58,392 nucleotides of DNA from Solirubrobacteraceae bacterium. GTDB lineage: Bacteria; Actinomycetota; Thermoleophilia; Solirubrobacterales; Solirubrobacteraceae. This document shows positions 43,623 to 45,941 of this stretch, one piece after another (the first letter of the stretch is position 1; the number at the start of each line of letters is the position of its first letter). Under the pieces are notes generated by a model. That model was given only the letters and a program-made list of their open reading frames with translations. It had not been told where the DNA came from and did no database searches. Both the position numbers and the translations under genes were made by a program. The DNA is taken from contig JAICYC010000013.1 in the NCBI GenBank assembly GCA_025934395.1, positions 1 through 58,392 on the forward strand, in the 5' to 3' direction.

Positions 43623-44915
43623 TTACGCGGCGGCCGCGACGGGAGCCGCGATCATGCCCGCCCCGACGGTGCCGTTGCTGGCCTCGTCGATCAGGATGAA
43701 GCTGCCCGTGCGGCGGTTGCTCGCGTAGCTGTCGAAGACCAGCGGCGCGCTCGTGCGCAGCCTCACCCGTCCGATGTCGTTCAGCGCGAGCTCGGATGGG
43801 GCATCGTCGGGTCCGCTGCGCTGGAGGGTGTGCACGTCGACGACGTCGTCGATCGCCTGCACCGCCGCCGTGACGTGATGCGAGGTGTGCTTGAGCACGT
43901 AACGGCCCCCGGGGCGCAGCGGCGCGTCGGTCATCCAGCACACGTCTGCGAGCAGCTCGCGTGCCACCTCGGGCGCCTCGTCGGGATGGCAGATCAGCGC
44001 GCCGCGCGAGATGTCGAGGTCGTCCTCGAGGCGCAGCGTGAACGACATCGGCGCGGTCGCCTCGTCGAGCTCCCCCTCGTAGGTGTCGATCGCGGCGATC
44101 CGCGTGCGGCCGCCGTCGGGCAGCACGGCGACCTCGTCGCCGCGGCGGAGCGCGCCGCTGGCGAGCTGGCCGGCGTAGCCGCGGTAGTCCTCCCCGGAGG
44201 CCGCCGGGCGCACCACCCACTGGACGGGGAAGCGCGCGGGCCGCTCGTCCGGGTGGTCATAGGCCACGTCCACCTGCTCGAGGTAGTCGAGCAGCACCGG
44301 CCCCTCGTACCACTCCATCCGGGAGGAGCGATCCACCACGTTGTCGCCGTTGAGCGCGGACATCGGGATGAACGACACATCGGTCGCACGGTCGCCGTGC
44401 GCGAGCCGCTCGGCGAAGCCGCCGAACTCCTCCACGAGCTCCTCGAAGCGCTCCCGCGAGTGGTCGACGAGGTCCATCTTGTTCACCGCCACGAGCATGT
44501 GCGGAATCCCGAGCAGCGCGCTGATGAACGCGTGGCGCTTGGACTGCTCCAGCACGCCCCTGCGCGCGTCGAGCAGGATCACCGCCACGTCGGCCGTGGA
44601 CGCCCCGGTCACCATGTTGCGCGTGTACTGCTGGTGGCCGGGGCAGTCGGCGATGATGAAGCGCCGCTTCGCGGTGGCGAAGTAGCGGTAGGCGACGTCG
44701 ATCGTGATCCCCTGCTCGCGCTCGGCGCGCAGGCCGTCGGTCAGCAGCGCCAGATCGAACGCCCCCTCGCCCCCGCGGCGCTCGCTCGCCTCCTGGACGT
44801 GCTCGAGCTGGTCCTCGAACACCTGCTTGGCGTCGTAGAGCAGACGGCCGATCAGCGTGCTCTTGCCGTCATCCACGGACCCCGCCGTGGTGAAGCGCAG
44901 CAGGTCAAGGGTCAT
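43623..44915 (-). CDS. cysN: Sulfate adenylyltransferase large (GTPase) subunit
   Basis: GTP-driven partner of CysD in making adenosine 5'-phosphosulfate from sulfate and ATP. 430 residues: G1 AGSVDDGKSTLIGRLL, DxxG region ADCPGHQQY, NKMDLVD (G4), then EF-Tu-like beta barrels (FPVQWVVRP). There is no fused APS kinase (CysC), consistent with direct APS reduction by the neighbouring CysH. It is separated from cysD by a 105-bp palindromic element instead of the usual tight spacing. Confidence 0.94.
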   Translation of the reverse strand: MTLDLLRFTTAGSVDDGKSTLIGRLLYDAKQVFEDQLEHVQEASERRGGEGAFDLALLTDGLRAEREQGITIDVAYRYFATAKRRFIIADCPGHQQYTRNMVTGASTADVAVILLDARRGVLEQSKRHAFISALLGIPHMLVAVNKMDLVDHSRERFEELVEEFGGFAERLAHGDRATDVSFIPMSALNGDNVVDRSSRMEWYEGPVLLDYLEQVDVAYDHPDERPARFPVQWVVRPAASGEDYRGYAGQLASGALRRGDEVAVLPDGGRTRIAAIDTYEGELDEATAPMSFTLRLEDDLDISRGALICHPDEAPEVARELLADVCWMTDAPLRPGGRYVLKHTSHHVTAAVQAIDDVVDVHTLQRSGPDDAPSELALNDIGRVRLRTSAPLVFDSYASNRRTGSFILIDEASNGTVGAGMIAAPVAAAA

Positions 44916-44922
44916 TTAGACG

Positions 44923-45027
44923 CTGAGATGGCCGTAGGCCGAGTCAGACAAGGACGCAGTGAGCGCCGCGTGCTTTGCACGCAAGCGAGCGAGGACGCCG
45001 TATGGCGAAGGCATACGGCCATCTCAG
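44923..45027 (-). repeat. 105-bp palindromic element between cysD and cysN
   Basis: The ends are a perfect 14-bp inverted repeat: CTGAGATGGCCGTA at 44923-44936 and its complement at 45014-45027. Inside are an 8-bp stem with 7-nt loop (GCCGTATG 44997-45004 / CATACGGC 45012-45019) and a 6-bp stem with a TTT loop (GCGTGC/GCACGC, 44968-44982). One end contains the cysD stop codon and the other is 7 nt from the cysN start. The inner right arm overlaps the outer repeat, so the long-range and local stems cannot form together. It may be a MITE/REP-like insertion or an RNA switch. Confidence 0.65.
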
Positions 45028-45941
45028 AAGTAGCCGGCCTTCTTGCGGTCCTCCATCGCCGCCTCCGACACCCGGTCGTCGGCGCGCGTCTCGCCGCGCT
45101 CGGTGATGCGCGTGGCCGCGATCTCGAGCACCACCTCGTCCAGCGTCTGCGCCTGCGAGACGACGCCTCCCGTGCAGCTCATGTCGCCCACGGTGCGGTA
45201 TCGGACGGTCTCGGTGGTGACCTCCTCGCCGTCGATCAGCTCGGCGAACGGGCTCATCGCGTAGAGCATGCCGTCGCGCTTGAACACCTCGCGCTCGTGC
45301 GAGAAGTAGATCGATGGCACCTCCAGCTGCTCCTGGTCGATGTACTCCCAGACGTCGAGCTCTGTCCAGTTCGACAGCGGGAACACGCGCACGTGCTCGC
45401 CGTTGTTGATGCGGCCGTTGTAGAGGTTCCAGAGCTCCGGGCGCTGGTTCTTGGGGTCCCACTGGCCGAAGTCGTCGCGGAAGGAGAACACGCGCTCCTT
45501 CGCGCGGGCGCGCTCCTCGTCGCGGCGCGCGCCGCCGAACGCCGCGTCGAAGCCGTGCTCGGCGATCGCATCGAGCAGGGTGACGGTCTGCAGCCGGTTG
45601 CGCGACGCGCGCGGGCCGGTCTCCTCGACGACGCGGCCGTTGTCGATCGACTCCTGCACGCTCGCCACCACGAGCCGCTCGCCCAGCTCCGTTACCCGGC
45701 GGTCGCGGAACTCGATCACCTCGGGGAAGTTGTGCCCGGTGTCGACATGCATCAGCGGGAACGGGAACGGTGCCGGCCGGAACGCCTTCTCGGCGAGCCG
45801 CAGCAGCACGATCGAGTCCTTGCCGCCGCTGAACAGCAGCACGGGCCGCTCGAATTCAGCGGCCACCTCGCGCATCACGTGGATCGCCTCCGACTCGAGC
45901 GCCCGCAGGTGACTCAGCTGTGGGCGCGCAGCAACGCTCAT
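45024..45941 (-). CDS. cysD: Sulfate adenylyltransferase small subunit
   Basis: Catalytic subunit of ATP sulfurylase, 305 residues. PAPS reductase/N-type ATP pyrophosphatase fold with VLLFSGGKDSIVLL, FPLMHVDTGHNFPEV, FGGARRDEERARAKERVFSF, and the standard C-terminal MEDRKKAGYF. The natural C-terminus coincides with the start of the palindromic element, so the element has not truncated the protein. It lies 7 nt after cysH. Confidence 0.95.
   Translation of the reverse strand: MSVAARPQLSHLRALESEAIHVMREVAAEFERPVLLFSGGKDSIVLLRLAEKAFRPAPFPFPLMHVDTGHNFPEVIEFRDRRVTELGERLVVASVQESIDNGRVVEETGPRASRNRLQTVTLLDAIAEHGFDAAFGGARRDEERARAKERVFSFRDDFGQWDPKNQRPELWNLYNGRINNGEHVRVFPLSNWTELDVWEYIDQEQLEVPSIYFSHEREVFKRDGMLYAMSPFAELIDGEEVTTETVRYRTVGDMSCTGGVVSQAQTLDEVVLEIAATRITERGETRADDRVSEAAMEDRKKAGYF

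What the first reader, a model, noticed from the sequence alone, without database searches (positions are those of the whole stretch)
44923..45027. Palindromic element with mutually exclusive hairpins separates cysD from cysN
A 105-bp element is bounded by perfect 14-bp inverted repeats, one containing the cysD stop codon, the other 7 nt before cysN. A local 8-bp stem uses part of the right outer arm, so the RNA can fold either locally or end to end. CysD and CysN are normally made in equal amounts from tightly spaced genes, so a switchable structure here could tune their ratio, or the element may be a MITE/REP-like insertion.
Basis: partly seen in the sequence, partly recalled or inferred. 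Interest (0 to 1): 0.72.

Follow-up and report, generated by a model that had tools for sequence, protein, structure and literature searches.

The report
Gene-end hairpin family, oriented and stop-anchored
The odd palindrome between two sulfur-metabolism genes is one copy of a large, apparently undescribed family of DNA hairpins scattered through a class of environmental bacteria, usually sitting at the very end of a gene and facing the same way, so it is not a special switch for those two genes.

Summary
It is not a cysD-cysN switch. It is one copy of a ~100-nt hairpin family: 29 matches below E 1e-4 in this genome, a match in 34 of 41 genomes of the order and in 79 of 199 of the class. Rfam has no match. 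In the cysD-cysN gap it occurs in 1 of 30 cysD loci, this one. Three features set the family apart. (1) The hairpin base sits on the upstream gene's stop codon: 89 of 137 copies on one side, 3 on the other; stop types match background, and tRNA 3' ends also serve. (2) Orientation to that gene is nearly fixed. (3) Wobble and G-A pairs lie on the strand antisense to the gene (201 G-T against 30 A-C; unfitted set 24 against 8). Best reading: a REP/MITE-like gene-end hairpin whose recognised form is the folded antisense strand. How it works is open.

The parts
44923..45027 (.). Whole element; the strand modelled in R1/R2 is the window plus strand, the transcript of cysDN carries the minus strand
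44923..44940 (+). Distal outer arm (P1), complement of the stop-codon arm
   Evidence: covariation (helix 1)
44943..44949 (+). P2, 5' side of the plus-strand hairpin
   Evidence: helix 2
44950..44967 (+). Conserved left inner strand (AAGGACGCAG.GAGCG..)
44968..44982 (+). Apical hairpin P4, 6 bp with a 3-nt loop
   Evidence: helix 5
44983..44999 (+). Conserved right inner strand (AAGCGA.CGAGGACGCC)
45000..45006 (+). P2, 3' side
   Evidence: helix 2
45010..45027 (+). Proximal outer arm (P1), holds the complement of the cysD stop codon
44997..45019 (+).
45024..45941 (-). cysD, the upstream gene whose stop codon anchors the element
43623..44915 (-). cysN, the downstream gene, start 7 nt beyond the element

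Best explanation
The element is a lineage-specific copy of a class-wide dispersed family of imperfect hairpins that lodge at the 3' ends of genes. Shown: copies share a conserved inner core and apical hairpin; outer arms are copy-specific but complementary; in most copies the hairpin base coincides with the upstream gene's stop codon (in four copies a tRNA 3' end); orientation to that gene is nearly fixed; the mismatch pattern says that the strand antisense to the gene is the one kept foldable; copies come and go between species. Inferred: the family spreads and persists as a REP-like gene-boundary hairpin, and a host or transposition factor reads the folded antisense (template) strand, as ssDNA or as antisense RNA. 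Inferred for cysDN: the insertion separated genes that abut or overlap in several relatives; because the long stem brings the cysD stop and the cysN start within about 7 nt in space, ribosomes may still pass from one to the other, so no dedicated ratio switch is needed.
For: Family. Covariation: 21 of 32 pairs, 0 of 500 shuffles, slides of 1-3 columns drop pairing from 91.0% to 24-47%. Lineage-specific at cysDN: 1 of 30 loci. Stop anchoring and orientation: 112 of 137 copies have a same-strand gene ending near the proximal arm; stop's last base at arm positions 0-8 in 89 on the proximal and 3 on the distal side; outside the genus 26 against 2 of 80 at positions -1 to 8. tRNA ends. Stops TGA 66, TAG 42, TAA 4 against 34, 19, 2 for window genes. 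Strand: G-T against A-C 168:22 and 33:8, 24:8 in the unfitted alignment A1, 90:33 outside the genus; antisense strand folds better in 111 of 133 (RNA) and 120 of 133 (DNA parameters). Turnover: half-copies at nrdJ, tandem pairs, recent multiplication in G037.
Against: No transposase or recombinase was tied to the family: Y1/RAYT is missing from this genome and from 35 of 41. No target duplication in genus copies beyond shuffled pairs. A simple mobile element does not explain one orientation and precise stop anchoring. 24 of 79 upstream-gene clusters carry it in two or more genomes, which hints at inheritance and function. 25 of 137 copies had no called gene at the proximal arm and 20 of 80 outside the genus. 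In G037 the recently multiplied long copies occur in both orientations.
Confidence: 0.55

Rival explanations
1. A conserved functional gene-end element rather than a mobile one: it marks or protects 3' ends (mRNA stabilisation, transcription boundary, or a barrier to antisense transcription entering the gene).
For: Stop anchoring, fixed orientation and arms kept complementary; tRNA ends; upstream genes such as dnaN, nusG, rpoZ, guaA, ffh, ftsZ; the same genes in several genomes; arms at shared sites more alike, 0.652 against 0.568.
Against: Copy number 0 to 29 per genome; the pairing strand is not the message strand; no promoter-like motif in the flank from which an antisense RNA would come; convergent neighbours not enriched, 36 of 101 copies against 18 of 55 window gene ends.
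Confidence: 0.3
2. An attC-like recombination site: a tyrosine recombinase acts on the folded antisense (bottom) strand after the gene's stop codon.
For: Same geometry: hairpin after the stop codon, antisense strand folded, arms variable but complementary. attC recombination by the bottom strand: abstract start of PMC2727003 in the listing.
Against: attC-type R boxes (motifs recalled) at both ends in 0 of 133 copies in either orientation; copies follow scattered housekeeping genes, not a cassette array; no integrase search was made.
Confidence: 0.08
3. The reader's cysDN-specific switch with two exclusive hairpins.
For: The local stem exists in this copy.
Against: Local stem not conserved and about 11 kcal/mol worse when forced; the element is found after many unrelated genes and in 1 of 30 cysD loci.
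Confidence: 0.03
4. Chance palindrome or assembly artefact.
For: The genome is a fragmented assembly (151 contigs).
Against: z of about -6; the same core with different arms in many assemblies, including the one-contig genomes G128 and G221.
Confidence: 0.01

Closest known systems
REP / BIME elements (GTAG and CGTC super-families; PMC3733652, outline with abstract and 12 passages read)
   Same: Dispersed palindromes, mostly downstream of coding regions, between same-direction and convergent genes; copy number varies between species.
   Different: About 100 nt instead of 20-40; GTAG just outside a foot in 3 and CGTC in 11 of 133 copies; RAYT-type transposase missing from 35 of 41 genomes; fixed orientation at the stop codon; arms differ in each copy.
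Integron attC sites (general features recalled; PMC2727003 seen in a listing only)
   Same: Hairpin after the stop codon, structure kept while arm sequence varies, folded strand antisense to the gene.
   Different: No R boxes (0 of 133); conserved core is inside, not at the ends; not in cassette arrays as far as seen.
MITEs
   Same: Non-coding, dispersed, hairpin-forming; in G037 a longer version has multiplied, 13 places at 84-100% identity, often with TA beside both ends (read by eye).
   Different: In the genus no shared terminal repeat (first 6 nt of stem: 101 distinct of 133) and no target duplication; no transposase identified.
Intrinsic transcription terminators
   Same: Stable hairpin at gene ends.
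   Different: No run of four T within 40 nt downstream in 0 of 109 copies, but also in 0 of 55 control genes, so this separates it from the textbook form only; large conserved internal motif; G-T and G-A pairs on the non-transcript strand.

Membership tests
REP (GTAG/CGTC) | unit of 20-40 bp | tested here: not met
   stem-to-stem lengths mostly 99-115 nt among 137 copies
REP (GTAG/CGTC) | unpaired GTAG or CGTC tag at one end | tested here: not met
   GTAG 3, GGAG 7, CGTC 11 of 133 copies within 8 nt of a foot
REP (GTAG/CGTC) | RAYT (Y1) transposase in the genome (GTAG type) | tested here: not met
   PF01797: none in G000, found in 6 of 41 genomes
REP (GTAG/CGTC) | dispersed, downstream of coding regions | tested here: met
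   112 of 137 copies
attC | R'' and R' boxes (RYYYAAC / GTTRRRY; motifs recalled) | tested here: not met
   0 of 133 copies in either orientation
attC | folded bottom strand, variable complementary arms | tested here: met
attC | integron integrase / cassette array | not tested
   no integrase search was run
MITE | shared terminal inverted repeats and target duplication | tested here: not met
   genus copies: 101 distinct first 6 nt of 133; flanking direct repeats as in shuffled pairs. The long G037 version may meet it (by eye)
MITE | related autonomous transposon | tested here: inconclusive
   only short end pieces and a core-less derivative seen in G037; other genomes not searched
intrinsic terminator | U-tract after the hairpin | tested here: not met
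   0 of 109; control genes 0 of 55
any Rfam 15 family | covariance-model match | tested here: not met
   none at E<=5 for window 44700-45250, both strands

The most novel reading that the evidence does not exclude
A new kind of gene-end element: a hairpin placed at the 3' end of genes as such (stop codons of any type, tRNA ends) and in one orientation, acting as a folded template strand or antisense RNA. It would spread by a route coupled to transcription or to RNA 3' ends rather than by DNA target sequence, and each copy would keep its own gene-specific arm by compensatory change.
Probability: 0.22. Interest if true: 0.87.

Novelty: new variant of a known kind. Interest (0 to 1): 0.6.

Why it matters
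A repeat family found in a large part of one bacterial class, placed precisely at gene ends with a nearly fixed orientation and with its non-standard pairs on the strand opposite the message, does not fit the REP, MITE, attC or terminator pictures. If confirmed it gives a handle on how sequences come to lie, or are kept, at gene 3' ends in bacteria, and the covariance model could be used to annotate it. For cysDN alone the matter is ordinary.

Tried and rejected
Rejected or led nowhere. (a) cysDN-specific switch: absent in relatives, local stem not conserved. One search also gave one weak match (E 5e-4) in L209 (G007), about 1.1 kb upstream of cysD and so not in the gap, and three matches of E 0.16 to 0.85. 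(b) Intrinsic terminator: no U-tract, but control genes lack it too. (c) Antisense RNA with its own promoter: no base bias or clear motif in the 5' flank of the modelled strand. (d) Barrier against convergent transcription: convergent neighbours 36 of 101 against 18 of 55. (e) RAYT-driven REP. (f) attC R boxes. (g) Target duplication in genus copies: as in shuffled pairs. (h) Orientation set by replication: in G128 the strand changes between the two halves of the contig (26 of 28), but that the contig starts at the origin was not tested; the two exceptions follow gene direction. (i) Plasmids and phages: no match with this copy. A 16-mer pattern hit 27 viral contigs; none of the 27 loci matched R2. 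(j) Named organisms: R2 gave 0 hits in 37 of the 80 named cysD loci; the class is inferred from the best CysD relatives (Thermoleophilaceae/Solirubrobacterales), not from a name of this genome. (k) Literature: searches listed no description of this family; only PMC3733652 was opened; subscription papers are mostly not held.

Cautions. Of the hits I fetched a part: 31 own matches, two of them short pieces, and 106 in 100 relative loci, mostly the best-scoring rows of a cut list. A4 holds 80 matches in 78 loci; of G037 it has only the 8 loci outside the recently multiplied version, and it includes about a dozen near-identical copies of G128. Gene calls come from my own codon-usage script. At least six of the 25 copies without a called gene are second copies of pairs or contig-end pieces. 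One search scored at most 21 candidates per genome and at most 10, so these are lower bounds. E-values of R1 and R2 are rough. An earlier count said 19 of 20 for G128; the recount is 18 of 21 (one opposite, two without a called gene).

Full report
What was checked. The 105-bp palindrome is in the sequence as described, with the cysD stop in one arm and the cysN start 7 nt beyond the other. Both strands fold far better than shuffled sequence. cysD and cysN are on the minus strand, so the transcript carries the minus strand of the element.

It is a family. A search of the same genome with 111 bases gave many partial hits sharing the inner part. Side by side they show one plan: copy-specific outer stem, AA opposite GCC, variable stem P2, two conserved strands facing each other across G-A mismatches, and a 6-bp apical hairpin with a 3- or 4-nt loop. 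Some copies carry a longer apical stem or an extra small hairpin. Fifteen simple copies were aligned (A1). Of 32 named pairs 21 have changes on both sides; 91.0% of cells pair against 73.6% in shuffles (0 of 500 as high) and 24-47% when partners are slid. A covariance model of the plus strand (R1) finds 30 matches at E<=1 in this genome, 29 below 1e-4, and a match at E<=0.01 in 34 of 41 genomes of the order, 0 to 29 per genome. A second model (R2) matches 79 of 199 genomes of the class at 1e-5 and 15 of 396 of the phylum at 1e-6, five of them from one family outside the class. Rfam has no match.

At cysD-cysN it is lineage-specific. Thirty cysD loci from 27 genomes were read past the stop codon and searched with R1; only this genome has the element in the gap. 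In several relatives the two genes abut or overlap (read: G011, G016, G018, G021); in others the gap holds unrelated sequence.

Where copies sit. Of 137 matches in the genus (31 here, 106 in 100 fetched relative loci), 112 have a gene on the transcript strand whose stop lies near the arm at the 3' end of the modelled strand. Counting only stops whose last base falls at arm positions 0-8, 89 copies are on that side and 3 on the other, two copies being in both counts. The stops are TGA 66, TAG 42, TAA 4, much like window genes (34, 19, 2), so no single stop sequence is the target. The distal arm usually carries the complement of the stop (listing). Outside the genus the rule holds more loosely: 60 of 80 copies have a same-strand gene ending near the proximal arm, and 26 against 2 have the stop at positions -1 to 8. 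In the one-contig genomes it is 18 of 21 examined loci of G128 and 8 of 9 of G221. Four copies follow tRNA genes in the same orientation. In this genome 19 of 26 upstream proteins match an NCBIfam model; among them are dnaN, nusG, rpoZ, guaA, ffh, ftsZ, lexA, sufB, nuoD, cysE, argC, cysD and nrdJ. No U-tract accompanies the element (0 of 109), but control genes lack one too (0 of 55), and no promoter-like motif was seen.

Which strand matters. In the paired columns G-T pairs on the modelled strand outnumber A-C 168 to 22 in A2 and 33 to 8 in A3, 24 to 8 in A1, which was not fitted to the model, and 90 to 33 in A4 from outside the genus. G-A plus A-G against T-C plus C-T is 120 to 4, 22 to 2, 13 to 3 and 130 to 13. 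The modelled strand folds better than the transcript strand in 111 of 133 copies with RNA and 120 of 133 with DNA parameters. These results point to the strand antisense to the upstream gene. Cells count sequences, not events, so shared ancestry inflates them.

Mobility and descent. Copies are gained and lost: none found in three species of the genus (G012, G016, G018, strict filter); half-copies at nrdJ in G002 and G019, read by eye; tandem pairs. Of 30 nrdJ loci searched, 7 hold a match below 1e-5. In G037 a longer version of roughly 180 bp has multiplied, with 13 places at 84-100% identity, often flanked by TA and in both orientations, and a core-less derivative exists. Yet 24 of 79 upstream-gene clusters hold the element in two or more genomes, and arms at such sites are somewhat more alike than elsewhere (0.652 for 29 pairs against 0.568; inner parts 0.819 against 0.801), so part of the set is probably inherited. 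Y1/RAYT transposases are missing from 35 of 41 genomes, this one included.

The local stem.

Judgement. The family fails defining tests for REP, attC, MITE (in this genus) and textbook terminators while sharing features with each. How it works is unresolved. I favour a REP-like gene-end hairpin read as the folded antisense strand, with a functional 3'-end element as the main rival; the two are not exclusive.

Noticed in passing
L192, L193, L196, L198, L200, L205 (cysD-cysN gaps of relatives): The gap after cysD in several relatives holds a different recurrent, apparently hairpin-forming sequence with a TTTTAGGGGCGCGC-like stretch, unrelated by eye to this family.
   Followed up: no
L462 positions 419-472 (G037): A 54-bp core-less derivative holding only the outer arms of the long G037 version.
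   Followed up: partly
L381, L383, L385, L387 (nrdJ 3' ends, family f4): Classic hairpin plus T-run terminators follow nrdJ here, whereas no run of four T was found after 55 window genes.
   Followed up: no
L010 1444-1560, L030 1428-1546, L022 1501-1592: Two recurrent internal variants: a CCCA-TGGG mini-hairpin inserted in the left inner strand, and a long extension of the apical stem.
   Followed up: partly
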